This document shows, one piece after another, positions 5,141 through 30,436 of a stretch of 64,000 nt of DNA. The DNA comes from Rhizophagus irregularis (lineage: Eukaryota; Glomeromycota; Glomeromycetes; Glomerales; Glomeraceae), in NCBI RefSeq assembly GCF_026210795.1, contig NC_089434.1:62001-126000 (forward strand), in the 5' to 3' direction. Positions within the stretch are counted from its first letter, which is position 1; the number at the start of each line of letters is the position of its first letter. Under the pieces are notes generated by a model. The model saw only the letters and a program-made list of their open reading frames with translations. It did no database searches and was not told the DNA's origin. The position numbers were made by a program, and so were the translations under genes.

Positions 5141-5730
5141 ATTCAATAAATGTGCTTTATGATTTTATCTGATCTAAGACTTATCGAAGAATAAAAATTC
5201 GATACTACTGGCCGACTTATTTTAACTGTTACTAGTAAACCGAACAATGATGGAAATCATAATAAAAATGTATGTACCCACATTCTTTTATATTGCATAA
5301 GCTAGTAAATGATTTATTCTAAATAATAAACAATTTTGTCACCAATTGTATTAAAAGATTTAATAATTCTCCTAATTACCCACTGAAAATTTATCATTTG
5401 ACTATACATGATGAAATAATGTGTACAAAATGAACAAGGAAATATACAAGGAATGATATTTAATAAAGAAAAAATAGGCAGAAAGTCAAAGATTTTTATA
5501 AAAAAGAATATCGTTGGATGATTAAAGAAATAATTGAAAAAAGAAATATTACAATAATATTATTTGAAGGAAGTATTTTTAGAAAAAAAAAAATTAACTG
5601 TATGTACTAATTAATATACATAAAATTCGCAAAAGCAGGGGAGGGGGATCGGTTATTAGTGAAAAATAGGTAAATAGAATACAAAATATAGGAAATCACC
5701 ACCATCACAACACCACCACAATCACTACCA
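5141..5730. other. Intergenic, no gene seen
   Basis: AT-rich DNA downstream of X1. A (CACCAC)-like run lies at about 5697-5730. I see no supported ORF or repeat family. Confidence 0.4.
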
Positions 5731-5759
5731 TCAATCGTCCATTTCAAGATAATCATCGT

Positions 5760-5945
5760 CAGAAAGTTGGTCAGAAGGTTGGCCAGAAGGTTGGTTGGAA
5801 GATTGGCCGGAAGGTTGTTGGTTGGAGGATTGATCGGAAGGTTGTTGGTTGGAGGATTAATCAGAAGGTTGTTGGTTAGAGGATTGGTCGGAAGATTGGT
5901 TAGAAGGTTGGTTGGAAGATTGGTTGGAAGGTTGGTCAGTACTTG
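5760..5945. repeat. Minisatellite coding the QPSNQSS tail of X1
   Basis: Imperfect 12-30 bp units (GGAAGGTTGGTTGGAAGATT) encode repeated Q-P-S-(N/D/G)-Q-S-S on the minus strand. The in-frame TAA of X1 is inside this array. The open frame on the plus strand is a shadow of it. Confidence 0.75.
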
Positions 5946-6289
5946 TTAATAAAACAGTCTCTTCCATTTCTTCCTCCCCTTCTCCAACGTCAGCATCATA
6001 TCCATCATTAAAGGACTTTTCACTTTCCGCAAATTTCATCAAGTCATACTGCTGGTCTTGACGCTGGTCCAGCTGCTGGGTGACTGCGATCTTTAACTTT
6101 CCTTTATATCTGGAACGAGTCCAATGCGGCGCCAACAAAGGCGCCGCTGGTTCATTATTACAAAAACAATTGCCCGTAACTCGCTCACGTAATTTTCTAT
6201 TATTTGGTTGTTCAGTTCTTAATCGGTCAATATATTCACGCAAAAATAATCGTAACTTAAAAAAATTAAAATAGTTGGTAAAATTAAAA

Positions 6290-6400
6290 ATAGTTAGAAA
6301 TAGTTAGAAATAGTTAGAAATAGTTAGTAAATAAATTAAAAATAGGTAGAAATAGTTAGTAAAATTAAAAATAGTCAGAAATGGTAAAATTAAAAATAAT
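6290..6400. repeat. Short tandem repeat in an X1 intron
   Basis: About eight copies of ATAGTTAGAA-like units lie in the last intron of X1, which explains why this intron is longer (about 170 nt) than its neighbours. Confidence 0.7.
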
Positions 6401-7239
6401 AAAAGCAGGAAGAAATACTCACTGTGTCAGATCTCCACTTAAGATCTTTGACAATAATATTGCTTCTCCCGTTTTCGCAATCAGTCTCGGATTCCTCGGG
6501 TGAATGGTAAGCGTTATTGTCAATTATTAATTGTAAGTCTTCGTCCTTAAATTTCTTGACTAATGAATTTTTCACCATCTGTAAATGTTTTATTAGTCTT
6601 CCCCTTTTTAATCTTTTCTGTATTAGATAAGAAGTTAGTATTAAGCAAATATATACACTGTACAAAACTTTATTTACTCACGTCATGGCGTCTGGAATTG
6701 GAATGTTTTCTTTTTTCTTGCAGTTTTTTTCTTGACGATGACCGATTCTTTTTAAGGTGCTCTTCACGTCGATGACGATGAAAGGAGTGAATTATATCAT
6801 ATAAAATTTCGTTAGAAATAGGAAATATATTATTATTAATATTTTCCATTATACTAGATATAATATCGTTAATAACACGATTTCGCTGATTAGTGAATGT
6901 TTGACCCAAATCAATCCTTCTCCCTTCTGGTAACGCATCATACTTCCAAATAACTTCCTTCTATATAAAATCAACAATATCAGTTAATAAATATATATAA
7001 AATTAATTTGAGATATCCTTATTTATTCTTAAGGCTTCTCTTAGATCTTTTGGCATATCACTCTTCGTCAAATAGAAGGGAGTATTTGAACTATTTGAGC
7101 TATAGGAGCTGTCCGAATCACTTGAATCGTCTGAACTTGATTGGACTGGGGCTTTTCCCTTTGCTTTATCGCTGATGGCTTTTCTGGAATTTTTGTCACC
7201 ATCGTTAGTATTTTTTTTTTGACGGCCTTTTTATTACCC

Positions 7240-7400
7240 CTGTATTTTTCATTAGTAGCGCTGGTTACAGCGCTTACATCTTCTTTTTCATTAGTGGCGC
7301 TGGTTACAGCGCCAGCGCTTTCATCTTCTTTTTCATTAGTGGCGCTGATTACAGCGCTTTCTTCACCTTTTTCACTAATACCGCTAGTTACAGCGGTGTC
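7240..7400. repeat. Tandem repeat of about 48-54 bp coding TSATNEKED
   Basis: Three to four units around TCATTAGTGGCGCTGGTTAC encode (A/V)TSATNEKED(E/V)SA in X1 exon 2. Unit lengths keep the frame. GC content is clearly higher than in the surroundings. Confidence 0.75.
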
Positions 7401-7928
7401 GCTTTTTCCATTTTAATTGTTATATCCTCATCTGACGATCTAAGAATTGGTTCTTGTTGAGAACCAGCCTGTGAAGAACCCCGTGAAGAAACAGCCCGTG
7501 AAGAAACAGCCCGTGAAGAACCTGGCACCCCGTAGGGTTCATTATTTTGCTGTTCTTGTTGTCCTTGTATAATATTCGCAATTTTTTCAAAAAAATATTT
7601 GGCTTGTTGGGTAAAAGCTATTAATTTAGATAATCATTAGTTTTTAGTAATATCCTGATATCTGCTGTCCGCCGATCAACTTACCCAATAGCTCGTCTAC
7701 TTTCTCTAAATCTTTCTTATTGGACATATTTAATTCAATTTTTTTAAATTTTTTTAAAAAACATAAAAATATCCACAGTATAGAAAGAAATCAGTATTTT
7801 TTTTTCAGATCGATTATTTTCATTATTTTTAACAATTTTAACAATTTTCAATTGTTCTAACAATTAACAATTAAATGATTAATAAATTTAATAAATTAAA
7901 ATCTTGACAATTAATCATTAGACTAATG

Positions 7929-8170
7929 ATGTAATGATGTAATATTATACGCGAAATTTGCAGAAATTAAGCTATGTTATATGTTATTTAATAAGATATC
8001 ATTGACTTACAACTTTTCTATAATTTATTATTTGACTGTAACGATGTAATGATGTAATATGATACGCGAAATTTGCAGAAATTAAGCAACACTGATATAT
8101 GTTATATGTTATTTAATAAGATATATCATTGACTTACAAACTTTTCTATTATTTATTATTTGACTTTATT
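7929..8170. repeat. Tandem duplication, two copies of about 120 bp
   Basis: Two copies share TACGCGAAATTTGCAGAAAT, TTATATGTTATTTAATAAGA and a following TTGACTTACAA..CTTTTCTAT segment. They lie upstream of X1, between it and the coiled-coil ORF. Confidence 0.75.
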
Positions 8171-8199
8171 ATTCGACAAATATTATATCGAAATAAGAC

Positions 8200-8520
8200 T
8201 TACTCGCATATTTCACGTATTTTAATTTTACTGTCTTCATCCTCCTCACCCTCCTCACTTCTGATATTATTTATTTTGACAGAGGATGCTAACATCAGAG
8301 CACTGCTGAACGAATTCACTTCTTGATTATTTAATAAAGTTCCCATTTCTGAATTATTAAGTAGGGATAGTTGAGTTTCTAATATATCGATCTTTTGTTG
8401 TAGAAAATCATTTGCTTCTTTCTGCATACTCATGATTTCCGTTAACGCACGATTACAGTTTTCTAATTCTACAACCTTTTTCCGAGATTCTATATCCCTG
8501 ATCGTTGAGTGATTCGACAT
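8200..8520 (-). CDS. Small coiled-coil protein, possible first exon
   Basis: 106 codons from MSNHSTIRD. Residues about 10-60 show heptad-like leucine/isoleucine spacing with charged residues between (VVELENCNRALTEIMSM and DFLQQKIDILETQLSLL), so a coiled coil is likely. The C-terminus is acidic (SEEGEEDEDSK). A good donor (GTAAGT) overlaps the last codons, so this may be the first exon of a longer gene, but I found no convincing next exon before X1, 470 bp downstream on the same strand. I do not recognise the family. Confidence 0.45.
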   Translation of the reverse strand: MSNHSTIRDIESRKKVVELENCNRALTEIMSMQKEANDFLQQKIDILETQLSLLNNSEMGTLLNNQEVNSFSSALMLASSVKINNIRSEEGEEDEDSKIKIREICE

Positions 8521-10105
8521 TATTTGTAAAGAGTCATTTACTCGCGTTAAATTCTCATTCTTTCGTATCAGATTTTGCCTAATGTATTTAAGGCTACTAT
8601 GTTTATGCTTTCAGCCCATTATAACCCCTAGGATTAAAATAAAAATCAATTTATAACCTTTGACTATTTATAAAAAAATGAGATAAAAAAAAAATGCAGA
8701 TATAAAAACCGAATATTGTGATATTCGTACGAAAGACCAATAACTATAAGAAAAAACCGGTATGAATATATAAAATAATTGTTAAGAATGTTTATTATTA
8801 TATTAAAGCGGAATCGGTTTATATAAAAGAAAATCGATAACCGTAAAAAAGAAACTGACTTGAATGTAATCTTTGTTTTCACCGACCTATTAAAATTGAA
8901 GGATATGCATTAAATTTTCAAGTAAATTTGTTCCATTTGATCATTATCGGTATACCTGTAATAAATTTTTGAAATTACAATCCACTTTCAAAAAAACTTT
9001 CAAACGTAAGAGATGACCGGCAGAAACATATCCGCCGATTTGCGGAATTGAGGCCTTTAGTCATTTAGTTTATGATAAATAAAAATGATAAAAATATTCC
9101 AAAAACCATTATGGAAATGATCAGATGGACAATACTATCACGTGCATATAACATTTGTAATAAGCGTATGTGAAATTTTCAAAAAACTCATATATTTTGG
9201 CATCCTATTATTTAAACCAAACAAAATTATGCTTAATTGAAAGCTCTATTTGAGTAGAATCTACTAATAATATTTTCATAAAAATAAATTTTTATATTAG
9301 TTAAGTTATTAATTTTTGTAATATATTATTTATTATTTAAAAAAAATTATTTTTTCTGTAACTTGTGATTCAAATATAGTAAAATTATACCAAAATAAAG
9401 CTTTAAATAAGATAATTCTAATGATATTAAAATAAACCTATTATTGACAAGGAGTTAAAGAGATCACATAAGTTTCCCACTATCAGATTCTTGAATAAAA
9501 TTTGCCTAAGTTTAAAATAAATGATAAAACTTTTTATTACTTAAAATTCTTTAAAATATGATATAAAATAAACAAATAAATAAACAAATAAATCATACCA
9601 AGTTTTGCTTTAAGTTCTAGGCTTTTACACTTTTTTACAACTTTACTACACGTTAAAAACCTTTAGAAACAAATAAAAATAGTTACTTATTATATTTAAT
9701 GTACAAATAACATGAAAGACTTTTCTATATCATAAACCCATCTAAACGTTAAAAACCCATCTTCTTTCGCGTTGTTTATTTGTGTTTATAGATAGTATAT
9801 TATTTATTTCAAAAGTAAAAGTTCCATTTTTTTTTATCAGTCCGCAAAAGATGATCATGTAACGCAATTAAAATTAGGGGTTGTGAAACAAATATCACGT
9901 TTTTCAAAATTAAATTGTTAAATCCTTAATTTAGGCCAGTTCCGAAGATCAGCGCATATGAGCTGATGAACTTATTTATCATGAGTTTTTTTATAATCGG
10001 CACGATTTTTATTGCTGCTTACAGACTAATTACTCATGCATGATTACCTTATAAGAAAATCAATCAAATAAATTATATTGGAACTTTTTTATTGTAACTT
10101 TAATG
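8521..10105. other. Gene-free AT-rich spacer
   Basis: About 1.6 kb without a supported ORF in either direction. Short open frames here have no recognisable composition. Confidence 0.5.
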
Positions 10106-10300
10106 CTGCAGTGGCGTATTGGTTAGGGAATGTAATACCTGGATTATATTTCTGAGTTCAGTACCTGCTGTATGCATTACTTTCCAGAATATTTGACCAT
10201 GACCGTGAGTTCTCTGGACCGGTTGGCTTGGATGCCGTGAGTCCTTTGGACCGGCCCGAGTCTTGATATTCTGATCTTTTTTGTATATTAACAACAGTCG
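10106..10300 (+). mobile_element. tRNA-derived SINE candidate
   Basis: A box-like TGGCGTATTGG (10112-10122) followed by GTTAG, and a B box-like GTTCAGTACC (about 10156-10165), have spacing close to a tRNA internal promoter. The stretch is far richer in GC than its surroundings and holds an internal duplication around CCGTGAGTYCTYTGGACCGG. It does not fold into a full tRNA that I can see. It ends in a T-rich stretch near 10275. Confidence 0.45.
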
Positions 10301-10477
10301 AAGGGTTATTTAACTATCATTTTAGTTACTTGAATTGAAATAGTCGTGTAACTAATTAATTACTCAAAATAAAAATATAATACATCGTACACTTCCATTA
10401 AATGTTAAAGTAAATCTGCATATTTAAAATTTATATTTTCACCAAACAATAGAATTCTATTATACCAGTAAAAATTC

Positions 10478-13400
10478 TCACAAATGAAACTGCCTATTTA
10501 TTAGGATTACAGCATTATATGTAATAGGATTCTTTTTGCCAATTACAAATTCACCAGATACAAAGCGACTATATAGGTAATGAATTGGAATTAAACAATC
10601 TCGCTCTATCTCATAAAATTCATTTCGCAAAAGTTCAATATTTGAGCTTTTTTCATCACTATCAATACTTGTATAAAATCGGGTTTTCTGGTTTGGCGCC
10701 AGTTTATACCATTTAACAAATACTAATCGATGTGTTTTAAGTTCACCCGAAATTCTCACAGTATGTTCAAAATAATACTGTACCTGACCTGGAAATAAGT
10801 CGGTCGTTTCATTGTTTTGGATAAATTTCGCCAAAACATTTGCGTTTTTCAGGTATCAGGGTGCCATTGCCGATCCAAACACTTCTGCTGAGATCCTAAC
10901 CCGCCCAAATTGATCAACCATATTTGGCACAACTATTGCATCTCTTGAACTGGTTGATGTTGACTCAGCAATTGTTACAAATTGCAAGTCGTAAGCAATA
11001 TTATAATATTCAGTTAGGATTTGATAAATATCATCAGGCAAGGCAACCCGATTTTTACATGGCGTAAGCATTTCTCCAGGAAATGGTTCGCTACCGACAA
11101 TCATTTTATCAACTTCTTGGAAGAATACCTTTCTAAATTGATACAGCTCAGTGTAATTAAAATTATCGTAAGCTGCTAAACTTCCGGAAGTTGATCGTAG
11201 TTGAATTAATTTTAAAGCTTCAACAAGCTTAACATTATTTGATTGAACGGATACAAGGTTATCAAGTCTCCAATTTCGCATTATAATTCGTAAAAGTTTG
11301 GGTTCAATTTGACGATTACTATTGGGAAAAGAGCCTATTGATATATTATTTAATAAATTATTAGCAAGCTTAAATGATTAAACAGTTCACAAAATACCTA
11401 CCGAGGATACCGTTCATTCTTTCAAAGGAAAAACACCAGAAAGAATATAATGGACCATAATCCTGGCAATAATCGGCAATATGAAGATACAAATGGAGGT
11501 TTGGGGTTATTCTTTCCGGACCATAATTTTCTTCAATTAACGTTGCAACTTTGAGCAAACGTTCGTGAGCTTCGTTCAATATGTCACAGTCAATAATTCG
11601 ATAAACTAGCAGAGAACAAGCTCTAACGAAATTCCCCAAAATTTGTCGATCTGGTTCAGCGAGCAAATCCCACATCAACGGGATAGCATAAATTAGAACA
11701 AACGTTTTATATTGGTCGGCCATAAATCCGGAAAATCCTTTTCCAGTTGTGATTTTATTTGGAATACGCCCCAAATCCGCGGGTATTTGTATGTATTTTG
11801 CTCGCTTTTCCATTTTTTCTAGATCTTGTTTCGTGATCTTGTTGCCATCGATCCATAATTTTTTAATTATCCAATGGGCTATTCCGAGGAACAAACAGTG
11901 CATTGGATCTACGACAAGGTACCTTATCGGATTAAAATACGGCAATCGAAGCAGTTCGGACCATCTAACATGGGTTGAACTCACATGACGTTTTCTTTCC
12001 TCCTCAGATTTACACAGTCTCCAAAGCTCAGCATTCCGTCAATGTTCATCCAAATCTCTTTCTACAAACCAGTCAACCATATCATCAAAGCCGCCAAAAT
12101 TTGACTTATTTCCATTTCCATTTGAATTTGCAGTTTTATAACACCTATGGCAGCTCACTGATGCCTGATATGTGACTGCGAGTTCCTCGCCGCAGGAATG
12201 TCATTCGAACAGCATATTAATGCCAATCGGATATTTTTTTCAGCGGCGGGAATCTCAATCCCATCCCAGAACTCTAATAACTCATCAACAATCGGAGCGA
12301 GATAATGGTTAATTTTGTGTAACTTAACCTCGCTTGGTCCCGGTAGTAGACCAAGCGTCAACATATTTTCTTTTTTAAATCTAATTTCACGCGGTAGGTT
12401 ACAAATAACCCCATAAATAGCCCCACAGCTGTATACAGATGACTCGAAAGGCTGAAACCAATCGAGATTAATCATAATTCCCAAGTGGGAATCTGCAGTC
12501 TCCGGTGTAAAAAATGGGACGTCTGAAGTATCTGGAAAAGTTTTCCAGATTTTACCGTCATAAATATCTGCTAACATACCATTATTTACATCCTGATTGG
12601 TCCATTTTCATAGTTGTTGCTTGAATTCTGGTCTCTGGTACAAATTGTTTATCTGTATTTTCAAATTCGGCAATGGAAATAACAATTTGGGGCGTCTTTT
12701 ATTTCCATTACCATGCGGTACTTGCACAGTTAATTCCATTCCGCAAAATTTTTCCTTCGGTTTCATTGGAAATTCTATATGCGTACATTTAAATCCTTCA
12801 TCCGCAACAACATCAGCTATATTATATAATGTATTACAGCTTAGACATACTGCGTAAGTCATAGATTGGTTGTCGATTCGTAATAACTTAGTCGCAGTGT
12901 ATAAAGAAGATGGGAAATCTTTGAATCTCGTCTGATTAGCATCCATTAATACTTGATGAAAAAACTTTATTAAAGAATCTAGTGCAACATCCGGCAAGCA
13001 AAATCTTGCTTGATATTTGAATATCCATGTTAATATCCAAGAATCTGCAATATTAACATTTGTGTTGGGATATGCAAATTCTGAATCATTTTCAGGCGCA
13101 GCAAATTGTTCAACAGGATCGTCGTCCAAATCCATATTGTCTTCTGGAGAAATGTCACCTTCATATTCATATTCATTAATCGGTTCATTGCTTTCCTTAT
13201 TGGTTTCCGGTTCCCGAAACTGGTCTTGTCTACGCCTTTTTTGAGGGACAAAACCGGCAAAATCTGATTCATAATTATTATTAAATGATGTTGACTCTTC
13301 TTGTCCGGTCATTTCTTTTGATCTTGATGATCCTTCTACGATTGGACTATGATAGACGGTATGTGCTGGCTTAATCCGATTGTTTCTGGGAAAAAGGTGA

Positions 13401-13530
13401 CAAATCCGGAAACGCTAGACGCTAAATGACGCTCTAAATCTAGATGTCTTTTTCTGGTTCTTTCATCAACATATTTGCCATTGCATTCCTTGCAATCACA
13501 TGATACTTTATATCTAAGTTTTGTAGACAT
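10478..13530 (-). pseudogene. Tnp2-like (CACTA/EnSpm) transposase, copy 1
   Basis: It starts MSTKLRYKVSCDCKECNG, an N-terminal Cys motif (C-x-C-x2-C). Then come an acidic region, FCLPDVALDSLIKFFHQVL, DWFQPF (about 12460), LGLLPGPSEVKLHKINHYL, VVDPMHCLFLGIAHWIIKK (about 11900), FERMNGILG, and a C-terminal domain with GQVQYYFEHTVR. These blocks match 'transposase domain' proteins of the Tnp2 type; the candidate acidic residues are D in DWFQPF, D in VVDPMH and E in FERMNG (inference). One intron, 11401-11335, phase 1 after NGILG, is shared with both other copies. Damage: a frame change near 13340-13390, TGA at 12608-12610, a frame change near 12170, a TGA around 12040, and TGA at 10856-10858. 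X2 is its head-to-head neighbour. Confidence 0.8.
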
Positions 13531-14228
13531 GATTATGTTTTAGTAAGATCGAAGCGTTCAATGAAAAATTTGAGAATTTCTACGTATGTATCTTATAGCC
13601 TATTTATGAATGCCAAAATCGACGAATAAAGAGCTTTTAATATGTACAATTTCATATATTAGTCCGGTCTGAATAGACTATTATTGCTTAGTGGCATGTG
13701 AAGATAGGAAATTGTACGGGGTATTAATGAAAAATTAATATTAATCGGGTTTTACTATAGCGAAACCAGAAAATTATCACGCGGTCTGTCCGTTTTGGTA
13801 ATTCGCTCAAATGATTTAGTTGCAAAAATATCGGACTTGACCCTTCTGGTGACATCATCTTGACCCTTATTAAAATATATTATGCGGGTCAGCACCGCGT
13901 GGTGGGTTAAGAACGATACCGACATTCGCGAATTAATTATATTGCAGAGCGAAACGTTGTTCTTTTTTACCATATTATAAGTCTTTTTTTTTTTTGGTCT
14001 AAAATTTTCAGTTCTTTCAGTCCTTTATAGTAAGTAAAGTTATAAAATCTTGTTGTTGGATTTCTGCAACGACCGAAGTCAAAAGCCCGAAGGCTTCTGA
14101 GCCCTCTACCAACAAGGCTTCCTAATAGATAAAGAACCGGACCTTTTTTATCCCAGAGAACCTCGGAGGCTAACCGATACATAACTTTCTCTTTTTTTTT
14201 CAACATAACTTTCAATAGAGTTTACAAA
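13531..14228. promoter_or_regulatory. Shared 5' spacer between transposase copy 1 and X2
   Basis: Divergent spacer of about 700 bp between the ATG of the transposase (13530) and the ATG of X2 (14229). The equivalent spacer of the second pair is 313 bp. GC content rises at about 13770-13900 and 14040-14170, which may be an inserted repeat. I could not identify a shared promoter element by eye. Confidence 0.35.
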
Positions 14229-17200
14229 ATGGGAAATAAAAAGCTTCGTAAGGAAGAGTAAGTAACCCTTCGTGTCAGTTAACTTATCAAAAATTGAGAT
14301 ATATTTATAAATTTATACAAAAAGCAGCCTGGAATCAGAAATCTTATACGAATCTAGTTCGGAATCAGAATCAAAATCGGAATCGGAACTAGGTACATTT
14401 AGTATGTCGTATAATTCTGCTTATTGTGTTCTAAACATTCTGATTCACTGCTTAATCATCAGGAAATTATATAGTGCGAAAAGTTGCGCAAGTTTACACA
14501 TCATAATATTTCGTAAGCTTCCAGACCCGCCGCAAGTTTGCGTAAGCGTAATATTTTGTAACTTTTTAAAATATTTCGAAATATTACGATATGCAAAGCT
14601 TCGTAATTTTACGATTTGTAATATTCCGTAATTTTGCGGTTCGCAATATTTCGTAATTTTACATATTATTTCGTAAGTTTTCAGACCCGCCGCAAGTTTG
14701 CGTAAGCGTAATATTTTGTAACTTTTTAAAATATTTCGAAATATTACTGTATGCAAGGCTTCGTAATTTTACGATTCGTAATATTCCGTAATTTTACTGC
14801 GTAATACTTCGCAACTTTTTAAAATATTTCGAAATTCTATGATGCGTAATGTTCCATAATTTGACGATTCGTAATATTCTGTGATTTTACACAACTTAAT
14901 ATTTCGTAATATTTCAAAATATTTCGATAAATAATACTTCATTTTCTGTACTATAAGTTTATATAATGTATGTTTTATTAGATATAATCATAAAAAATTA
15001 CAAGTATTTATTAATATATACAGAATACATAAAAGTAAAAAAAAGAAAGAGTAGAGTAACAATATTATTAGACGTAAAAAGAAGAGAAACAGCTATAGTA
15101 ACGTTAGTATTAGATATAAAGATAAAAGAAATATTGTTATTATTGTTAGTATTAAGGTAAAAAGAGTTAAAGAAACAGTAAAAGGAGTAAAAGAAACATG
15201 GATATTATCGTTAGTATTAAAGTACAAGTAAAAAGAAATAAAGGAAACGTAGATAGTATTGTTAGTATTACGACATAAAGTAACAAAGAGGTAAAAAAAA
15301 ACGCGTTAATATTAAAATAATTAGTATTAATAAATAAATATTTCTATACCTGCAAAGTAATTGAACAAAAGAATAAAGAAATAAAGAGAAAGGAAAAAAT
15401 AAACATGTTGTTAGTATTGTTAGTATCGTTAGTATTAAAGTACAAGTAAAAAGGAATAAAGGAAACATGGATATTATTGTTAGTATTACGATACAAAATA
15501 ACAAAGAGGTAAAAAAAAATGAAAATAATTAGTATTAATAAACAAATATTTCTATACCTGCAAAGCAATAAATTATGAAATATATGTAAATATATTGTAT
15601 ATAATTAAAGAAATAATAGAAAGAAGAGACAAAAAAATTAAAAATATTGAACAAAAGAATAAAGAAATAAGAAACAAAAATAAATAAGACAAAAACGCGT
15701 GCATAATTAAATGATTAAATGATTAAATCACATGCAAGGATCAGCCTAATTTTGATTGGCCAGAAAATACGATATCATAAAATTACATTTTAAAAAATTA
15801 TATATTGTACAGCGGGTGTGACATAAATAAATCGTGACTGAAATTTGTGTTCAATTTGTGTTTAATTTGTGTTGATAATTCTGGTAAAAAATTATTAATT
15901 TTGGCCAAATTTCGTTAAATTTGTTAAATTTGTGTTGAGTTTGTGTTGAATTTGTGTTGCGTAATTTTTTATTTATCACAAGGGGATGATATTTAGTAAT
16001 TGCATGTAACGACGTACAAGATTTTTTTTTATGATTTTTTTAAGAAATGTACGCAAAATATTTAATCAGAATATAATTGTTTTATTTTTAAATATGATAT
16101 ATTGATGATTTTTTTTTAAAAAAAAAATTGATTTTTTTAAAATTCAATAGAATGTGCTAATAATAAATTGGTTTATTTTTAAATATAATATATTGATATT
16201 TATATTTAAATAACCAAAACATGTACATGATTTTTAATTATTTTTAATTGAAATCAAACTAAGATTTTTTTTTTAAAAAAAATTAAAATAAATTAAGTGA
16301 TTTATATTTATATTTAGAATCATGATATTTATATTTAGATAATCCATATCCGCATGAGATTTAATTAATATGTTTAATGATGAAAAGTCTAATAAATTAA
16401 ATTTTAATTGAAATGAGAAATAAAATCAAACCAAAGAGGTATTGTTCAAATTTTATTTAAAGTGACATTTTACGACTTTCTTTCAAATTTTTACTCATCC
16501 CAAAATCAAATTACTAATAATGCCTCGCCACACACGTCGTCGTTCCCACTATAACGTCCATTGGAACTGGGCTATGATGGACGAACTTGTTGACATACGC
16601 CGAGACAGAAACCGCGCCTACCACAATATTAATGGTAGAAGCCGCCAAGATTTTTGGGACTCTGTTGCCAATAGGTTCATATGACTAATATCTATAATTT
16701 CTTTAAGAAAAGAATTTAAATTCAAATTAACCAATCCATTTAATTGAATCAGAATAAATAGAATATTTCGAACGAGGGTTTCCAGGCAACAGTGCAGCCA
16801 AAAGTGGAGGAACCTCGTCAGGGATTACCATGTAAGTAAATAAATAACATTACATTCATATAAATTAAATGTATTTACCGAATATTCAAACTGATTTTGA
16901 TATTTAGAACTATGTCCTTTATCGTAATGGTAACCCTGGGTGGCGGCTGTGAACGCGTACCGGCGCAAGATATTATCGCGAATTTAGAACGAGATTTTGG
17001 GAGAGGCCGGGTAATTATACTATAATAAAATTTATAATTAATATTTACGTTCATGTTTTAAATTTGATAAATTTGATCAATTTTAGTCACGCGTGACGAT
17101 CGTAGGGCAAGGAGAAACTTACCTACGTATCGTAGAAGAAGATAATTATTTTTATTTTTTTATTATTTATTAAGTGAGTAGCTAGGCCCAGTCCGTACCA

Positions 17201-19107: not shown

Positions 19108-19260
19108 AATATGTTAGTAAATTTAATAAATATAAATAAATATATCAGTAAATTTAATAAATATATCAGTAAATTTAATAAATATCAGTAAATTTAATAA
19201 ATATATCAGTAAATATAATGCTTGAGTCAAACAGATTGAAAAGAAATTAAAGACTGAGAC
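19108..19260. repeat. Short tandem repeat after X2
   Basis: Five imperfect copies of ATATCAGTAAATTTAATAAAT lie directly 3' of the X2 stop codon. Confidence 0.75.
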
Positions 19261-20150
19261 AACCTTTTTGGTTCAATTTTCACAATACCTAATTTTTTTA
19301 TTTTATTTCATCAACTGACAATCATACCGATATACCGATATATCAAGCTAATCTAGCTGCGGATTACCAGCCAGATTATTTTTGACATTAATTTAGAAAT
19401 CGACATATATACGCAAAGTTGCTAAATTTTGTAAATTTCACGAGTCGGGCTAACTAATAAATCGGTATCCGTATTTGCAAATATATTGTTATAATACGCA
19501 AATAGTCCAATTTGATTAGTGATCTGGATCATTGAAATTTAATCTGATTGGCCAGATCTCTGTTTGATTACGATAAATATGGAAATAAGCACATTTTGTT
19601 TACAACAAAACCTTTTTACCTATTTGCGAATTTTTCTTTTTTTTGCCGTTTGCCTATTTGCGAATTTTTCTTCTTTTGCCGTTTTGCCTATTTGCGAATT
19701 TTTCTTATACCATCTTACGAATGCGTTGCCTATTTTTTGTTTATTTTTGCTTATTATATCACCGTTTACTTTCTACGCCCATAATATATGGTGTGAAATT
19801 ATTGGACTCGTTCACTGACAATGGTTGACATACTGGTATGTCAGTTACTTTCAGCTGTATGAGTTTATAACAAATTAATAATAATAAGCACTTTCACATT
19901 CAACAATCGTGAACGGGAATATTCCAATTTTATTCTGGAGACAGATACGGAAACTGTTATTTATCGCTAACCTTCACTATTTCCTTTTTGTAAAACAGGT
20001 TTCATTGAGTTGTGTTTCAAATATCCTCCTGTTTTTATAGGTGCGAGAACATGCCGATTTTTTGATGAATTTAATACTTCTTTTGCTCCTCACACTCAAT
20101 CAAAGTGAAATATAGAACGACAATGCATATTTCTTTCGATTTTCATTTTA
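19261..20150. other. Gene-free region with a triplicated 30-bp word
   Basis: No gene supported. At 19619-19706 the word CCTATTTGCGAATTTTTCTT occurs three times in tandem with TTTTGCCGTTT linkers; the overlapping open frames there only reflect this repeat. Confidence 0.55.
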
Positions 20151-20159
20151 CTGAGTGTA

Positions 20160-22270
20160 ACTTTAAAAATGGTAAGCGAATATTTGTACTGATCTTCACT
20201 TCTAACGAAATAAACTTTATTCGTTTTTAGCGATCAGAAATGAAATGTATATATACCGATTTTGATAAACTTCATTTAGAGGCAAGCCTGACTGATGGGT
20301 CTAATGGTATTATGGTAAGTAATAATAGGTATACTTTTTTTTGATATAACATTCTAGTTATGTATTTTTTTTCATGCATATTTTTACATATAGTACGCTG
20401 TGGTCTGGAACCACCCGAGATTTTTGACTACCTAGGGATGAAGTTGTAAGGTGCTTGTACCTGATAGGCTAGCCTCCTCTAATCTAGGGTCTCATTAATC
20501 GGGAGACGAGGTGGTTCCTAAGTACCTTCCACATCAAGGGCGGACATTTTTTGTAAAATCACACGTTGGGAATACTATCTCGTAATGAATACTTCAAAGA
20601 CAAAAGGAGCGAAAAGCCTTCAGTTTGTTGTTAGCGGTGAAGATGTAGTGGTCGTGCCATTTAATGGTTGCGTTGATTGATTGATATACTCATATTTTGT
20701 AGGATTAGCTAATACATGAGATTTCTCGAAAATCAGAAATGAACACTGCCGATTTTCACCCTACTGACATATATTTTTAAATTCGTTTTCTGCAATCAGA
20801 AACGAAGTGTATCTACCGGTGTTGAAAAACTTTAAAGGTGAGTTCATTCCTAGCACAATTCGTTTAGATAATTAACGTGACGGTATCTTTAAATTGTTCC
20901 TACTTTCAGCAATCGGCAAACTCATCTCTGATATCAGTAACTATGACCAGTTTTATGGTGGGCTAATGGAGTAAAATAGGTATGCTTTTTTTTTGATATA
21001 TAACATAGTTATGTGTATTTTTTCATGTATATCAAAAGGAGTGAAAAGCCTTCAGTTTGCTAGCGGTGAAGATGTAATAATGATCGTGCCATTTAATGGT
21101 TGCGTTGATTGATTGATTAACGTATGCCTTACTCATATTTTGTAGGATTAGCTAATACATGAGATTTCTCGAAAATCGGAAATGAACACTGCCGATTTTC
21201 ACCCTACCGACATATATTTTTAAATTCATTTTCTTCAATCAGAAGCGAAGTGTAACTACCGGTTTTGACGAACTTTAAAGGTGAGTTCATTCCTAGCACA
21301 ATTCGTTTAGATAATTAACGTGACGGTATCTTTAAATTACTCCTACTTTCAGCAATCGGCAAACTTGATTTCTGATATCAGTAACTATGACCAGTTTTAT
21401 GGTGGGCTAATGGTACAAATAGGTATGCTTTTTTTTTTGATATATAACATAGTTATGTGTATTTTTTCATGTATATCAAAGGGAGCGAAAAGTCTACAGT
21501 TTGTTAGCGGTGAAGATGTAGTGGTCGTGCCATTTGATGGTTGCGTTGATTGATTGATTAACGTACACCTTACTACTCATATTTTATTTGTAAGATTAGC
21601 TAATACGCGAGATTTCTTGAAAAATCAAAAACACTGCCAATTCTCACCCTACTGACATATTTTCTGCGATCAATAGCAAATTGTGTATTTACCGATTTTG
21701 ACGAACTTTATTAAAGGTGAGTTCATTCTTAGCACAATTCGTTTGAGATATTTAACGTGTCAATAATTAACGTTTCAGTCAGATCTAAATTGCTCCTACT
21801 TTCAGCAATTGGATAACTCGATTTCTGACGAAATGTAGAAGTACTGTGCCGAGGAGCGAAAATTAATTATTGCATTTGTCAGCGGTTCTTTATTAAATAG
21901 TTGCTCATGTTGATTAATCGATTAATGTACGCCCTTATTCATATTCTAATTCGCAAGATTTCTCAAAAAATCAGAAATGAACCGTATTTTATTTCATTTT
22001 TAGAAACGAATTTGTATATCTATCGATTTTGACGAATTTCATTCATTCGATAATTAACATGATGGTCTTTAAGCTGTTCCTACTTTCAGTAATCGGAAAA
22101 CTCGATTTCTGACGGACATTCGTTAGGAGTTTGGTAAGCAAGATTTCATCACCATTTATTTCTAATAACTTGTTTGTTCGTTTAATGTATAACATTTATT
22201 AATTCTTTATTTTTAAATTTGTTCCTGTTAGCAATCAGAACAATCAGAAACAAAAACGTACCGATTTTCG
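20160..22270. repeat. Tandem array of 350-450 bp units with splice-like borders
   Basis: Four to five diverged units. Landmarks recur at about 20703, 21145 and 21594: TAGGATTAGCTAATACATGA, ACTGCCGATTTTCACCCTAC, AAAGGTGAGTTCATTCCTAG, CCTACTTTCAGCAATCGGCA and AGCGGTGAAGATGTAGTGGT. Each unit holds a good donor (GGTGAGTT) and, about 80-100 bp later, a good acceptor (CTACTTTCAG), as a duplicated exon-intron module would. No long frame runs through; the best is 21320-21553, with VSGEDVVVVPFDGCVD. I do not recognise the encoded segments. Confidence 0.7.
20395..20606. mobile_element. Insertion in one repeat unit, type unknown
   Basis: This stretch of about 200 bp is present only in the first unit of the array and is much richer in GC. 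It contains an inverted pair, GGAACCACC (20408) against GGTGGTTCC (20510). It has no ORF; it may be a small MITE or SINE. Confidence 0.4.
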
Positions 22271-22496
22271 CTTAATCATATTACTTTTATTATGATTGTA
22301 TACATTGATATAAGTTCCCATTTGAAATAAATTATATTTACAACTATGATTGTACAATCAAATTTTTGAATATATTGTAAATTGTAATTAATAAAGCGCA
22401 TGTAGGCTGGAATTAAAACCATTGTTTTTAATAATTTGTAATTAATAATGCGTAAATAAATATATAATAAATAAAATAGGTGCATCATAAACATTT

Positions 22497-22874
22497 TATA
22501 AAACCGATTTTACCAATCGGCTATTACAAATCAGCTATTAATCAGTCATCAATACATTATCAATCGGTCATTAATACGCTACCAATCGGTCATTAATCAG
22601 ATACTGCCCGATTGCTGTCGGATTAAGCAAATCCAATAAGTCATCAATCAGTTATCAATTGACCATTAATTGACCATCGTTCGGCCATCAATTGACTCTC
22701 AATTTGTCACCAATCGGGCAGCCCGGATGATAGCCGGTTGTTGTCGGATTTTGGCGGAAATCAACTATCAATCGGGCAGCCCAATTGAAAAAATCAGTTA
22801 CCAACCAGGCATCAATCGGATACCCGATTGATGCCTGGTTGGTGACTGATTTGGCATCTTTCGACCTGTGTGGT
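22497..22874. mobile_element. Element rich in CCAATCGGT motifs, copy B
   Basis: More than a dozen variants of ATCAATCGGTCATTAAT or their complement occur, with a near-palindrome at 22800-22850 (ACCAACCAGGCATCAATCGG). The right end TTTCGACCTGTGTGG (22859-22873) is the inverse of the left end of copy A. It abuts the 3' end of transposase copy 2. No ORF, no target duplication seen. Confidence 0.55.
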
Positions 22875-22882
22875 GTGGCATA

Positions 22883-25800
22883 CTACAAGTTAAATCTTCT
22901 ATTCAAAGGTATAATCGACAAATATTTTTGTTTTCCTACCATAATATTTCTAAATTTTGTAGCTCGACATAATATCCTATGAACCGCTAACAGGGAATCA
23001 CAATTTTCTTGAAAGTATTCAGCTTTCCATAATTCGGTATTTGATATTTCTGGCTCCATAAAACTATGTTTAAACCGAATACTAGAAGAAGGTGCAGGTT
23101 TATACCACTTGACATATGCTAGGAGGTGAGTTTTCGTTCCTTCTGGAAATCTAAGGGCATGCTCAAAATAATATTGGACTTCACCCGGATAAGTGTCAAC
23201 TGAATCATCATTAGCTGCTTTCCATTTTGCAAATATATTCGCATTTTTTTCATGGTGACCAGAAATCATAGATCCAAATATTTTGGCGCCAATTTGTAGT
23301 CTTGCATGCTAATTCATATGCAAATCCATAAATCCTAACACATCTTCTTTTTCCCTTTCATATAATATTGCATACCATTCACATAGAAATTCTCGCAACT
23401 CCAAAGGCATAACGACATTGATATATGATGGGTTAAGCATTTGGCCAGGTAATGGTTCAGTGCCATATATTTTGAAAATTATAGACGTATTATGTCTCAT
23501 GAATAGAAAATGCTGCAGTTTCTCCCTTTCTGCTGTGATTGCTAAACTTTCTACAGCTTTTTTTGGTACAAGAAGATGGAGAGATTCATCTAGAAGGCCA
23601 GATGTCCATTTACATGATAAGTGATAATCCACCAAAGTGTTTTTAAGAACAATTTTCATTAATTCAGGTTCTATTTATCGGTTACTATTAGAATATGATC
23701 CTAAATAACAGGAATTTTTTTAATAAAAGTACTAAAGACAATTGAAAGACACTGAAGTAAATTTACCTATATATCCATTAAGTCTTTCAAACGGGAAAAG
23801 CCAAAAACTATATATAGGACCATAATCACGACAGCAATCAGGGATATGAAGTGCAAGATGTATATTGCTTGTTATAAATTCTGGTCCATATATATATTCT
23901 ATAAGGTAGGCCATATCTTTTAACCTCTCTTGCGCCTCCTTCAAATCATTATCTGTAATAAATCTTGCTACTAAAAAATTACAAGCTCGAACAAAATGCC
24001 CTAAGATCTTTCTATCATTATCATCTAGCATATCCCATAATATAGATGTAGAATAAATCATAATAAAGGTCTTCCATTGATCAGCAGTTAAGTTAGAAAA
24101 CCCATCATTTCCGATTGCAATTTTTGGAGGAATTCTACCAATGTCAGAAGGTAAATCAATATTATCCATTCTGTTTTGTGCTACACGAAGTTGTTCTATA
24201 GTTAATTTTTTTGGTTTACAAAAATGGATTTGATTATCCATTTTGCAACACCGAGGAAAAGACAATGCATAGGATCCACTACAGCAAATCGTATAGGATC
24301 CATGTATGGTAGGCGAAGCACTTCAGTCCATCTTATACCATATACTTTAAAATGTGCTTCTCTGGAGGACTTTGAGTTACATTGCAACCATTCATGAGCA
24401 TATTGCCTATGTAATAAAAGATCTGCAGGCTTTGTTACCCATTCATTATAGTCTTGCATTCTTCTGTAATGAGTTTTTCTAAATTTCCCGCTATAAGTGG
24501 TATATTTGTCACATCTATAGCATTTCATTACTGCAGATCTATGACCAAATAACTTTCGTGTAGCTGGAGTATCAGACGATCCAACAATTAACGCAACTTT
24601 TTTTTCTAAACCATTGGAAAATTGGTGAGTTTTTGGTACTTTCCACCCCTTCCAAAGTTCTAATAACTCATCTACAATAGAAGCTAGATAATGATTAATG
24701 CGTTCCAACCCTGCCTCTTTTGGTCCTGGTAAGAAACCCAAATATATAATATTTTCAGGCTTATTCCTTTCTGACCTTAGAAGATTACAAATAGACGCAT
24801 AAATAGCGCCAGTACTATGCTGCGTGTAGGAGAATGGTTGGAACCAATCAAGATTAAGGAGAAGACCTAGATAGGTTGTGGCAGTCTCTGTTGTAAAAAA
24901 GGTACTACCATCAAATGGAAAATTTTTCCATACCTTACTATCGTAAATATCTGAATAGATATTATTTTTGTTTCTTTGAGTCCCTGATAATTTTAACATG
25001 TTCTCAAAATCTGGTCGTTGATATAAAATGCTCAATTGCTGACGAATGTTTGGCTTAAGATAAAGCATGCGAGGTACCGCAATTGTTGCATTTTTATTTT
25101 TTTTGAGAATGGAAAGTGGATTATTGCATTAGTGATTACGACTTGATATTGGATTATTTGAATATTCTTTATACGGGCAATTCATTATAGTAACTTTTCC
25201 TTCTTCCTTATATGCAATAATATCTTTAACATTATGCAATTTATGGCAATCGGTACATGCAGCTAATTGCATTTTCGGTTGAAAAATGTTTAACCATATT
25301 TTTGCCATATATAATAAGGTAGGAAAATTTTCAAATTGCAACTTATTAAAGCGCATAAGAATTATATGAAAAAATTTTATTAAGGATTTAAGTGCAATAT
25401 CAGGCAATCGAAATCTTTGTTGAAATTTAAATAGCCATATTATAATCTCAGTATTAATAGAATCACTTAAGCTTTCCACTATAAATGCTTCTTCATTGTC
25501 ATTGTCAATCTTAGGAGATGCGAAAAAATCTTCTACATCATCATTCTCCTCTCATTCATCCACATCATCATTCTCTTCCTCATCCATATTATCTACATCA
25601 TCATTCTCCTCTCCTTCATTCACATCATCATTCTCTTTCCCATCCATATTATTTACATCATCATTCTTCTCTCCCTCATTCACATCATCATTCTTTTCCT
25701 CATCCATATTATTTACATCATCATTCTCTTCCCCCTCATTTATATTATCTACATTATAATTCTCACCAAAATAATTGATTTCATCATTATTTTCATTAAT

Positions 25801-26262
25801 TGTAGATGCTGGAATACGAAAACATAAAGGTTTTGATGAAAATAATGTTATATTTTCTTCAATATATTGGAAAGAGGGACCAGGATGGGAAGAGTCCTGA
25901 TTCGAACTAGATGTACCGGAGTAATTATTTCTTTTTCGCTTTTTTGATATATTCAATTTTATTTCTGTATTTATATATGTATTATTAACAGATGATGTTT
26001 TTTTCTTTCTTATCATGATGGTATTTTCCTGATTTTTTCTAAAATCTTTTGATCTCGATTTTCACAAACTATCATCATACGTATGTTTCTCTTGAGTGCG
26101 AAAATCAACTTCTGCACCTTTGCAACGAGCACAATTGCAAATATACAAATACTTTTTTTTGGGCTTTATTAAATCAGCCACAAAGGTTTCAGAGGTTTCA
26201 ACTTTACGTTTTTTATTACTCTTTATTAATTCAGATACAGAGTTACATTTTTTATTACTCAT
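22883..26262 (-). pseudogene. Tnp2-like (CACTA/EnSpm) transposase, copy 2
   Basis: It starts MSNKKCNSVSELIKSNKKRK; the Cys motif ICNCARCKGAEVD corresponds to copy 1. It continues with acidic repeats (25552-25745), FRLPDIALKSLIKFFHIIL, DWFQPFSYTQHSTGAIYASI, LGFLPGPKEAGLERINHYL, CYRCDKYT, VVDPMHCLFLGVAKWIIK (about 24260), IPDCCRDYGPIYSFWLF, FERLNGYIG, one phase-1 intron (23766-23701), and a C-terminal EVQYYFEHALRF domain. It is better preserved than copy 1. Damage: a stop at 26065-26067 with frame change, TGA at 25552-25554, TAA at 25129-25131, a -1 frame change at an A7 run (24206-24212), TAA at 23675-23677 where copy 1 has Gln, and TAG at 23309-23311. X3 starts 313 bp away in the opposite direction. 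Confidence 0.85.
25552..25745. repeat. 60-bp coding repeat, acidic 20-residue units
   Basis: Three and a half units encode ENDDVNNMDEEENDDVNEGE-like blocks in transposase copy 2. The DNA is pyrimidine-rich on the plus strand (CATCATCATTCTC), so the plus-strand open frames here are shadows. Confidence 0.85.
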
Positions 26263-26575
26263 TTTTATTAAAATGTATAAAATATATTTTTTATTCTATC
26301 ACTTTTAATAGTTAGTAATCAAGACGTTCAGAAACGAGCTTTTATTAATCCTTATCATACAAAAGAATTGCACAAGAATTTTATGAGCGCGTTACTTTTA
26401 CCTGGTGAGAATTGTGCAAACGCGTTGCTAACTCTGAGCCTTGATCTGCATCCTGAAATTTCCAAAATCATTATAAATTTGCACACAATCAACTTTTCTT
26501 GCATTCTGAAATCTCTACTTTATATGGGATTTTTTTATTTTACAAAATAACAAAAAGATTTTATACTTCGTAACA
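26263..26575. promoter_or_regulatory. Shared 5' spacer between transposase copy 2 and X3
   Basis: 313 bp between two divergent ATG codons, short enough for a bidirectional promoter. I see no clear TATA pair or operator; AT-rich runs flank a segment with higher GC at about 26390-26460. Confidence 0.4.
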
Positions 26576-27765
26576 ATGAATAGTGATAATGTATCATCTA
26601 GTGATGAATCATCGTCATCATCCTCCTTCTCCTCCTCCTTCTTCTCCTTTTCTTCTTTTTCTTTTTTTTCTAAAAGTTCTTATAACATAATAAAAGCAAG
26701 TATTTAATTATTTTATATATTATTTCTGCTTTTATCCTATTTACATTTATCTATTATTTTACAGAAAGAAGTGTTTATTTGGAGCGACTTCAAGCTAAAA
26801 GACGTATACAGTATTAACTATGAGCTCACATGGGCTGAGCAAAAAGATAATATAATCACCAAGTTGCTTCCACCACTTTACAAACTTGTAAATAAAAAAT
26901 ATAAAGTCTCAAATAGTGATTTATTAAAGATGTTATATGGACGTTGGTGATCTCGCCATCACGTTAGTAATATTAGAAAGCAAGGAAAGCCCAAATAAAA
27001 CGTAACAAAAGAAGAGCAATGAAGAATTCAAGGATGCAAGATGTAAATTATTTAATTAACAGAAGCTATTAAATTTAGTTTTTTTTTTAAATTAATTATA
27101 TTGTGCTTTATAATTAACATTGTTAGAAAAAAAAGAATAATAAACGTGGCTAATTACCTAATACAAAACAAAGATAAGTACATTTGCCGATATCCTGAAA
27201 AGGATCTAGTTCAAATTTTAAAAGATTCAGGCTACCATTCCAAAGAATGGGAGAAAACTGACGAAGATGATGAAGATGATGAAAATGATGAAGAAGAAGT
27301 AGTCACAAAAAAAAATTTGATATATATTTATGAAAGATGTTGGACATCTCCTGCTGTATGTATATTTTATTATTTTTTATCAAAGTATAAACACTAATTT
27401 ATAGTTTAATTTCTTTATTTAAGCTTCAACGTTTATTACATGATCGTATTGATCCAATGGTAGAGTTATTAAGGAAAAAACCACCAAACTTAAAATGTAA
27501 AAGAGTTCTAGACAAAACAGAAATAGCTAGTGTGCCACCTGCTGGCGCACCAAGCTGGTGTTTGAATAGAAAAGCACTTGAAAAATTCAACCGTTTAACC
27601 AAAAATATCCCGGTTTATGATTATGATACTGATGAAAGCATTATTCAAGACAACAATGGTGCCGATGATGATGTTGATAATAATGTCGTAAATAACAAAA
27701 ATAACAACAAAAGGAAAAAAAAGAAAAATAAATCTAAATCAAAAAATAAAAAAGCAAAAAAATAA
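26576..27765 (+). pseudogene. Family X copy 3 (X3)
   Basis: Likely exons: 26576-about 26702 (MNSDNVSSSDESSSS, a Ser/Phe-rich low-complexity start), 26765-27042 (278 nt, from KEVFIWSDFKLKD, with the same exon borders as X1 and X2 but one base short), 27127-27355 (SGYHSKEWEKTDEDDEDD, the YHSPE-like box) and 27424-27765 (LQRLLHDRIDPMVELL, GAPSWCLNRKALEKF, acidic stretch, Lys/Asn-rich tail). The missing base and the stops following YGRW in the second exon show decay. MPKDLREALR is not visible. It is a diverged third copy of X1/X2, head to head with transposase copy 2. Function unknown. Confidence 0.6.
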
Positions 27766-29717: not shown

Positions 29718-30199
29718 TAATAGTACAATACACTTTATACGCCATTTTGCAAATTCAGTGTAATAGTTTACAAAGAAAAAAGGGGAACGTATTTATTTTT
29801 TTGCCATGAGAAATTTAATTACAATAAGTGGATTTCAGAAAATCGCGGTAATTTGAATAATTTGTATATGCTTTTGATAACAGGTTTGAAGTTTAGGTAT
29901 TCTCTGGCCGCACTCTTGTATTACTATGATCACTGAGAGTTGGCTTGCTTATATAATAATCTTATCATTCAATATTTTCTAAAAAAGTAAATAAACATCA
30001 TCTATTTATAAGTATTCATGATTTGGAAAAACTCCGTATGAAGTTGAATCAAGCATTCCATAGCAATTATCTTTTTTCGTACACTGTATTACATTTTTAC
30101 AAAGTATAAAGCGTACAAAGCCAATACCAAATAGGCAGAAATCAGTAGCTGTTTTCTATACTACGATAATATTAAATAAACACACAAATTTTTTTAAAG
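29718..30199. other. Intergenic, no gene seen
   Basis: AT-rich; I see no ORF or repeat that I can support. Confidence 0.4.
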
Positions 30200-30436
30200 A
30201 TTGTACAAATATCAGTGACCGATATATATTAGATAACGGATCGGTGACTAATAGTTTGGATATCAGACACTTGGTAATTTACATTTTTTTTAACCATATT
30301 TGAAATTTGCGCATTATGTGACAAATCGGGTACTCGATATGTTGTTAATATGTAAAAATGCCCGATATGTACCTAATTAGTCACCGATATATAGGTATCC
30401 GATATGTATGAGATAGATCGTTTTTTGACCTGTGAA
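30200..30436. mobile_element. Possible CCAATCGGT-family element, copy C
   Basis: Degenerate GTGACCGATATATATTAG / ATCGGTGACTAAT words in both orientations, ending TTTTTTGACCTGTG like copy B. It is flanked by a short similar word on each side (GCTGTTTTCTATA at about 30148, GCTGTTTTCTGTATA at about 30444). The boundaries are tentative. Confidence 0.4.

What the first reader, a model, noticed from the sequence alone, without database searches (positions are those of the whole stretch)
5731..27765. Family X: three copies sharing an exon of 279, 279 and 278 nt and matching intron positions
Exons 6960-6682 (X1), 18312-18590 (X2) and 26765-27042 (X3) have the same borders and near-equal length, and the 1-nt shortage in X3 coincides with its frame break. 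MPKDLREALR (X1, X2), YHSPE-like and AP(S/H)W motifs recur in order. The proteins start M(S/G)NKK in X1 and X2. I know no domain with this combination.
Basis: seen in the sequence. Interest (0 to 1): 0.75.

Follow-up and report, generated by a model that had tools for sequence, protein, structure and literature searches.

The report
Accessory gene family of jumping genes
The three look-alike genes are not host genes but helper genes of two nested cut-and-paste transposons in a plant-symbiotic fungus, and they belong to a protein family seen so far only in such fungi, which may help the transposase recognise the transposon's own ends.

Summary
X1, X2 and X3 are homologous genes sharing a phase-0 GT-AG exon of 279, 279 and 278 nt (279 in both X3 copies fetched elsewhere). 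The genome is, by inference, Rhizophagus irregularis. They are not three independent host genes. X1 and X2 are diverged paralogues inside ONE transposon (element A, window 4471-22870), on either side of its transposase. A has CACAGGTCGAAA termini, 3-bp target duplications and subterminal repeats: CACTA/EnSpm-like. X3 belongs to a second, related element (B: Tnp2 transposase 22.9-26.1 kb, right end 30434) into which A inserted; two B copies elsewhere show the empty site. Of 72 X3-type matches, 48 lie head-to-head with a listed Tnp2 match. The family is large here (72-86 matches per single-exon query); the named relatives listed are all arbuscular mycorrhizal fungi; no Pfam family matched more than 3 of 37 members, no PDB fold matched, and nine literature searches found no description. 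Best mechanism (inferred, not shown): X is a TnpA-like accessory protein binding element-specific subterminal repeats (CAATCGG in A, TATCGG at the right end of B). All three window copies are damaged.

The parts
4471..22870 (.). Element A: CACTA/EnSpm-like DNA transposon, TIR CACAGGTCGAAA...TTTCGACCTGTG, TSD TGG; carries X1 (-), Tnp2-related transposase (-), X2 (+)
   Evidence: Common left border in 9 of 10 fetched copies; the 18 best genome matches other than the window itself start at window 4466-4472; TSD and empty site
4471..4830 (.). A left subterminal repeats: 10 CAATCGG motifs (both strands)
   Evidence: Dinucleotide-shuffle mean 0.06, max 1 of 200 shuffles; motif chosen from k-mer counts of the same ends
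22480..22870 (.). A right subterminal repeats: 8 CAATCGG motifs
   Evidence: Shuffle mean 0.12, max 2
5857..7727 (-). X1 gene (exons by eye 7727-7685, 7617-7027, 6960-6682, 6617-6423, 6255-5857); frames broken in exon 2, splice donor after exon 2 reads AT, early stop ending at 5857
   Evidence: relatives P0037, P0039
6682..6960 (-). X1 shared exon, 279 nt, phase 0
8200..8610 (-). Small ORF starting MGRKHKHSS, coiled-coil-like by eye, in A upstream of X1; separate gene or 5' exon, unresolved
10478..13414 (-). A transposase (interrupted frames); 43% and 49% identical to the B transposase of L055 over 370 and 268 aligned residues
14229..19107 (+). X2 gene (exons by eye 14229-14257, ~14326-14392, 18115-18248, 18312-18590, 18663-18851, 18916-19107); 3.6-kb insertion in the putative second intron; frame break and stop in exon 5
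   Evidence: relatives P0001-P0005, whose models disagree on the second intron
18312..18590 (+). X2 shared exon, 279 nt, phase 0
9027..9960 (.). 934-bp insertion in the window copy of A
   Evidence: Absent from the 9 fetched copies that cover the place; the tenth, C16, does not cover it
14457..18092 (.). 3636-bp insertion (43-nt inverted ends) in the window copy of A
   Evidence: Absent from all 10 fetched copies; inverted ends
22883..26061 (-). B transposase, Transposase_21 (Tnp2) and DUF4218 domains; broken here, 854-aa open frame in copy L055
26576..27765 (+). X3 gene of B (exons by eye 26576-26699, 26765-27042, 27127-27355, 27424-27765), divergent from B transposase; stop and frame break in exon 2; the exon 1/2 junction is uncertain
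   Evidence: relatives P0042, P0046, P0059
26765..27042 (+). X3 shared exon, 278 nt here, 279 nt in L055 and L056
1..30434 (.). Element B (runs off the left end of the window; interrupted by A at 4470/22871); right terminus CACAGGTCAAAAAA (inward) at 30434
30085..30434 (.). B right subterminal region: 4 TATCGG motifs, no CAATCGG
   Evidence: Shuffle mean 0.23, max 2; motif chosen from then on the same end

Best explanation
X1, X2 and X3 are accessory genes of CACTA/EnSpm-type DNA transposons of arbuscular mycorrhizal fungi. Shown: they lie inside elements with CACAGGTC termini and a Tnp2-type transposase; A carries two X paralogues and made 3-bp target duplications; A inserted into B. Inferred: X is a nuclear DNA-binding accessory that does the job TnpA does for maize En/Spm. 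It would bind the element's own subterminal repeats through its basic helical region, bring the two ends together for the transposase, and perhaps regulate the promoter region shared with the transposase. A (CAATCGG ends) and B (TATCGG right end) would each be served by their own X type. The two paralogues in A may divide this work (for example one per end, or one activator and one repressor). The window copies are decayed and probably inactive.
For: Element borders, TIR and TSD. Natural empty site: L055 and L056 run through window 4470/22871 with a 3-nt overlap. X1/X2 pairing at 12 of 13 places (by eye). Linkage to Tnp2: 76 of 157 X matches have a listed Tnp2 match within 8 kb against a random mean of 3.0 (max 9 in 200 draws); 48 of 49 linked X3-type matches are divergent head-to-head; 41 of the 47 best transposase matches have an X within 8 kb. 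Element-specific subterminal motifs. Basic helical stretch in the two proteins computed: net +14 over residues 99-160 of an X2-type and +13 over 89-150 of an X3-type. Plant TnpA binds subterminal repeats, and TnpA and TNP1 share little similarity (PMC2613891, passages).
Against: No DNA binding is shown, and no known DNA-binding domain recurs in X. B also carries a Myb/SANT-like ORF that could be the end-binding protein instead. 58 of 85 X2-query and 23 of 72 X3-query matches have no listed Tnp2 match within 8 kb, and only 21 of the other 82 listed transposase matches have an X near (the Tnp2 list was cut at 129 of 583 candidates), so some X may be solo or domesticated and some Tnp2 elements may lack X. 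CAATCGG is also somewhat enriched in the interior of A (6 in 13,079 bp, shuffle mean 1.16, max 5), and both motifs were picked from the ends they were then counted in. Only one end of B was seen, and only two element families were compared.
Confidence: 0.6

Rival explanations
1. X is an element-encoded anti-silencing or transcriptional regulator of the transposon (as VANC is recalled to be for VANDAL elements), acting at the promoter between X and the transposase rather than in the transposition complex.
For: Head-to-head arrangement with a shared upstream region in 48 of 49 linked X3-type matches; serine-rich N-terminal tails followed by basic helices.
Against: No catalytic or methyl-related domain found; the dense element-specific subterminal repeats fit end recognition at least as well. 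VANC is recalled, not looked up.
Confidence: 0.2
2. X is a protein that interacts with the transposase (dimerisation, nuclear import) without contacting DNA itself; end recognition is by the transposase or, in B, by the Myb/SANT-like protein.
For: Myb_DNA-bind_4 ORF in B, E 1e-6; X has basic clusters; no DNA-binding family match.
Against: No Myb/SANT-like match among the A ORFs that were scanned (not every A ORF was scanned); X is present in both element types whereas the Myb-like ORF was seen only in B.
Confidence: 0.15
3. X is a host multigene family that happens to lie near or be captured by transposons.
For: Many X matches have no listed Tnp2 match within 8 kb; sources name the relatives as hypothetical, uncharacterized or unnamed proteins, one as 'zinc finger protein 318 isoform X1'.
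Against: X1 and X2 sit inside bounded elements found at many loci, main blocks 93-99% identical to the window in 9 fetched copies; X3-type matches are divergent from a Tnp2 match in 48 of 49 linked cases.
Confidence: 0.04

Closest known systems
CACTA/EnSpm DNA transposons, fungal EnSpm (PMC12730594, PMC1636069; passages seen)
   Same: 5'-CAC..GTG-3' ends, 3-bp TSD, Tnp2/Transposase_21 transposase, subterminal repeats, a second gene besides the transposase
   Different: The second gene belongs to a family for which no known domain was found; element A has two diverged copies of it on either side of the transposase and on opposite strands; a separate divergent gene rather than alternative splicing of one transcript
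TnpA of En/Spm and TNP1 of Tam1 (PMC2613891, passages seen)
   Same: Accessory protein encoded with a Tnp2-type transposase in an element with repeated subterminal motifs
   Different: TnpA itself was not fetched or compared; Pfam and PDB scans give X no family; DNA binding of X not shown
Plavaka elements, reported as prevalent in several R. irregularis strains (PMC11075540, PMC12730594; passages seen)
   Same: CMC-type transposase lineage in fungi
   Different: Plavaka ends are TGT..ACA or CATCA..TGATG per PMC12730594; A and the right end of B end in CACAG
SmTRC-PrA of the Schistosoma CACTA-like element (PMC1636069, passages seen)
   Same: Fast-evolving second protein proposed by its authors to do TnpA's work
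   Different: Different organism; sequence not compared here

Membership tests
CACTA/EnSpm superfamily (element A) | Terminal inverted repeats beginning CAC | tested here: met
   CACAGGTCGAAA, first 12 bases identical at both ends
CACTA/EnSpm superfamily (element A) | 3-bp target site duplication | tested here: met
   TGG (window), TTA (C31), CTA (C15): the 3 copies for which both ends were read; 3-nt overlap at the empty site in L055 and L056
CACTA/EnSpm superfamily (element A) | Tnp2/Transposase_21 transposase | tested here: inconclusive
   No Pfam hit above cut-off in the broken A ORFs scanned, but 43-49% identity to the B transposase, which has the domain
CACTA/EnSpm superfamily (element B) | Tnp2/Transposase_21 transposase | tested here: met
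   34.9 bits, cut-off 28.6, in the window; 46 bits in copy L055
CACTA/EnSpm superfamily (element B) | CAC terminal inverted repeats on both ends and 3-bp TSD | tested here: inconclusive
   Right end CACAGGTCAAAAAA found; the left end lies outside the window and was not found in L057, L058 or L059, so neither the pair nor a TSD could be read
CACTA/EnSpm superfamily | Repeated subterminal motifs | tested here: met
   10 and 8 CAATCGG at the ends of A against shuffle means 0.06 and 0.12; 4 TATCGG at the B right end against 0.23; A interior 6 CAATCGG in 13,079 bp against 1.16. Motifs chosen post hoc
CACTA/EnSpm superfamily | Catalytic acidic triad and C2C/H-H motifs | not tested
   Not aligned to characterised transposases
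TnpA (En/Spm) | Sequence homology to TnpA | not tested
   TnpA was not fetched; in the Pfam scan no family matched more than 3 of 37 members
TnpA-like function | Binds the element's subterminal repeats | not testable with these tools
   Needs a binding assay
Plavaka | Termini TGT..ACA or CATCA..TGATG (PMC12730594, passage) | tested here: not met
   A ends are CACAGGTC; right end of B likewise

The most novel reading that the evidence does not exclude
X is a new, fold-orphan class of transposon end-binding protein restricted to arbuscular mycorrhizal fungi, an independently evolved counterpart of plant TnpA. Element A carries two diverged paralogues that act as an asymmetric pair, and the subterminal repeat code co-diverges with the X type between element families.
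Probability: 0.35. Interest if true: 0.6.

Novelty: new variant of a known kind. Interest (0 to 1): 0.42.

Why it matters
About half of the R. irregularis genome is repeats and two thirds of its TEs are unclassified (PMC11075540, passages). Placing this uncharacterised multi-copy protein family as the second gene of CACTA-like elements would turn many annotated hypothetical genes into transposon genes. It gives TE annotation a diagnostic marker and offers a natural set of paired proteins and end motifs for testing how accessory proteins and subterminal repeats co-evolve.

Tried and rejected
BEN-domain-like fold: suspected from the HRHQR helix; BEN was not among the families matched by the 37 members scanned and no PDB fold matched, dropped. 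Independent host genes: rejected by the element borders. CTE_TERT (E 0.0014), SopD (E 0.96), PF15862 (precomputed label on two Gigaspora proteins, not checked) and other weak matches: below cut-off, isolated or unchecked, not pursued. B left end: not found in the pieces fetched. Third homology search, aimed at relatives further out: 78 hits at E<=1, none with a name from outside the arbuscular mycorrhizal fungi (only the 7,991 candidates sharing most words were scored). Literature searches for this family; none of the listings or passages that I saw describes it.

Full report
What was claimed and what is there. The exon lengths (279, 279, 278 nt), GT-AG borders and motif order are correct. Two other copies of the X3 type, L055 and L056, have 279 nt and an open frame there, so the short exon is a defect of the window copy. 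X1 and X2 find each other at 29% identity (E 3.5e-12; E 4.6e-12). The X1/X2-type and X3-type profiles align over 206 columns with probability 99.2% and E 2.7e-19. The family is real.

Where it comes from. The window is G000:C6:62001-126000 of a 146.7-Mb genome in 32 contigs. The lengths of contigs C16 and C31 equal those given for the proteins named OCT59_008584 and OCT59_022376 of Rhizophagus irregularis, so I take the genome to be that species; that the OCT59 tags belong to strain DAOM197198 is recalled, not looked up.

Element A. A single-exon search with X2 gave 85 matches in the genome and one with X1 gave 86 (the lists overlap and are lower bounds). At 12 of the 13 places with a strong X1 match (74% or better) an X2 match of 88% or better lies on the opposite strand, 6.9-7.9 kb away at 11 of them and 11.6 kb in the window (counted by eye; the exception is C18:3467610). 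I fetched ten places with X2 matches. In nine of ten, similarity to the window begins at 4466-4471 and runs through X1, the transposase region and X2; C16 keeps only the right part. Main blocks are 96-99% identical in eight of the nine and 93-97% in C23. The 18 best genome matches to the left end other than the window itself start at window 4466-4472. The ends are CACAGGTCGAAA and its inverse. Target duplications are TGG in the window, TTA at C31 and CTA at C15, the three copies for which I read both ends. Element A is therefore window 4471-22870, 18.4 kb here, including two insertions: 14457-18092, absent from all ten copies, and 9027-9960, absent from the nine that cover the place.

Element B and the nesting. 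L055 and L056, two copies of the X3-type region, match the window up to 4470 and again from 22871, contiguously with a 3-nt overlap. They show the empty target of A. So A inserted into B just downstream of the B transposase. B has a Tnp2 transposase (Transposase_21, 34.9 bits, cut-off 28.6; 854-aa open frame with 46 bits in L055) and X3 divergent from it. Its right end is at 30434: the 23-nt terminus CACAGGTCAAAAAACGATCTATC has 46 matches in the genome with up to two mismatches and none for the reversed control. Its left end is beyond the window and was not found in the pieces fetched, so B's assignment to the superfamily rests on the transposase and one end.

Linkage. Of 85 X2-query matches 27, and of 72 X3-query matches 49, have a listed Tnp2 match within 8 kb; random placement of all 157 on the same contigs gives 3.0 on average, maximum 9 in 200 draws. 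In 48 of the 49 linked X3-type cases X is divergent head-to-head with the transposase, and in 19 of the 27 X2-query cases. Of the 47 best transposase matches 41 have an X within 8 kb; of the other 82 only 21 do. Against a simple reading, 58 of 85 and 23 of 72 X matches have no listed transposase near; the transposase list was cut at 129 of 583 candidates, so this may be incompleteness, fragments or solo genes.

The proteins. Annotated relatives support most exon borders, although gene models disagree on the second intron of X2 and on the start of the shared exon in X3. A search with one X2 model gave 36 proteins, all named Rhizophagus irregularis or R. clarus. A profile of seven sequences gave 152 at E<=0.01, of which 120 were listed: the named ones are Rhizophagus, Gigaspora, Glomus and Dentiscutata; 32 were not seen. 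A third profile gave 78 at E<=1, the named ones Rhizophagus, Gigaspora, Racocetra and Diversispora (only the 7,991 candidates sharing most words were scored). The rest are unnamed or metagenomic. That all these genera are arbuscular mycorrhizal fungi is recalled. In the Pfam scan of 37 members no family matched more than 3, best E 0.0018. Two Gigaspora proteins carry a precomputed PF15862 label that I did not check, and one R. clarus protein is called zinc finger protein 318 by its source without support in the Pfam scan. AlphaFold2 gave an X2-type model with mean pLDDT 80.1, pTM 0.55 and an X3-type model with 64.3 and 0.44; both begin with the same series of five helices, the fourth 33 residues long. 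The two input alignments share members, so this is not independent evidence. Neither model matches a solved structure (Foldseek best E 4.8 and 5.1; VIA none of 19 chains, first model only) nor, for the first, a viral model (best E 2.1). No match does not prove a new fold.

Subterminal repeats. The ends of A hold 10 and 8 CAATCGG motifs in 360 and 391 bp against shuffle means of 0.06 and 0.12; the right end of B holds 4 TATCGG in 350 bp against 0.23 and no CAATCGG; A ends hold no TATCGG. Controls: the interior of A holds 6 CAATCGG in 13,079 bp (shuffle mean 1.16, max 5), so it is also above chance, at about one fiftieth of the density of the ends; the interior of B holds 2 of each (means 0.38 and 2.0). 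The left ends of eight of the ten fetched A copies have 6-11 CAATCGG each; C23 and C16 were not scored because the exact end was not found. The motifs were picked from k-mer counts of the same ends, so the shuffle figures overstate their surprise. Each element family thus seems to have its own end motif and its own X type, but this is two families only.

How it may work. In maize En/Spm the TnpA protein binds subterminal repeats and is needed with TnpD for transposition, and TnpA and the Tam1 counterpart share little similarity (PMC2613891, passages). X occupies the same place: a second gene beside a Tnp2 transposase in an element with repeated subterminal motifs. The two X proteins computed have a strongly basic helical stretch at the same place in the fold (net +14 and +13 over 62 residues). 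I infer that X binds the ends and assists the transposase. None of this is shown biochemically. The Myb/SANT-like ORF in B is a competitor for that role, which is why confidence stays near 0.6 for the whole statement while the transposon assignment itself is close to certain.

State of the window copies. X1 has broken frames in its long second exon, a lost splice donor after it and an early stop in the tail; X2 has the 3.6-kb insertion, a frame break and a stop in exon 5; X3 has a stop and a frame break in exon 2; both transposases are interrupted. Copies in which the shared exon is open exist elsewhere. By eye, several of the frame breaks are in runs of one base, so assembly error cannot be excluded for some.

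Literature. Nine full-text searches found no description of this family. I saw passages of PMC11075540, PMC8647823, PMC2613891, PMC12730594 and PMC1636069, not their full texts or supplements. TE papers on R. irregularis report CMC-EnSpm and Plavaka families; whether their curated libraries contain A or B I could not check.

Verdict. The superfamily is known; the accessory family and the two-paralogue layout appear undescribed. Hence new variant of a known kind, moderate interest.

Noticed in passing
window 14457-18092: 3636-bp insertion in A with 43-nt inverted ends and about 50-bp tandem repeats at 17.5-17.9 kb; related DNA in L059 408-1050.
   Followed up: partly
window 9027-9960: 934-bp insertion in A, absent from the nine fetched copies that cover the place; not identified.
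   Followed up: no
window 29284-29710: About 426-bp MITE-like insert in B with 36-nt inverted ends; CTAATATGG on both sides.
   Followed up: partly
window 3458-3838 (-): Myb/SANT-like (PF13837, E 1e-6) ORF inside B, left of the A insertion point.
   Followed up: partly
window 1219-1920 (-): ORF with zf-C17orf113 domain, E 2.3e-10, in the left part of B that about 14 genome copies share and others lack.
   Followed up: no
window 20601-21830: Tandem repeat of about 440 bp, about three units, in the right part of A downstream of X2.
   Followed up: no
G000:C4:3939164-3939440: 277-bp stretch bounded by two inverted B-like termini (2 mismatches each): a likely MITE of the B family.
   Followed up: no
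window 42001-44000: Strong GC skew (-0.29) with AT skew 0.15, unlike the rest of the window.
   Followed up: no
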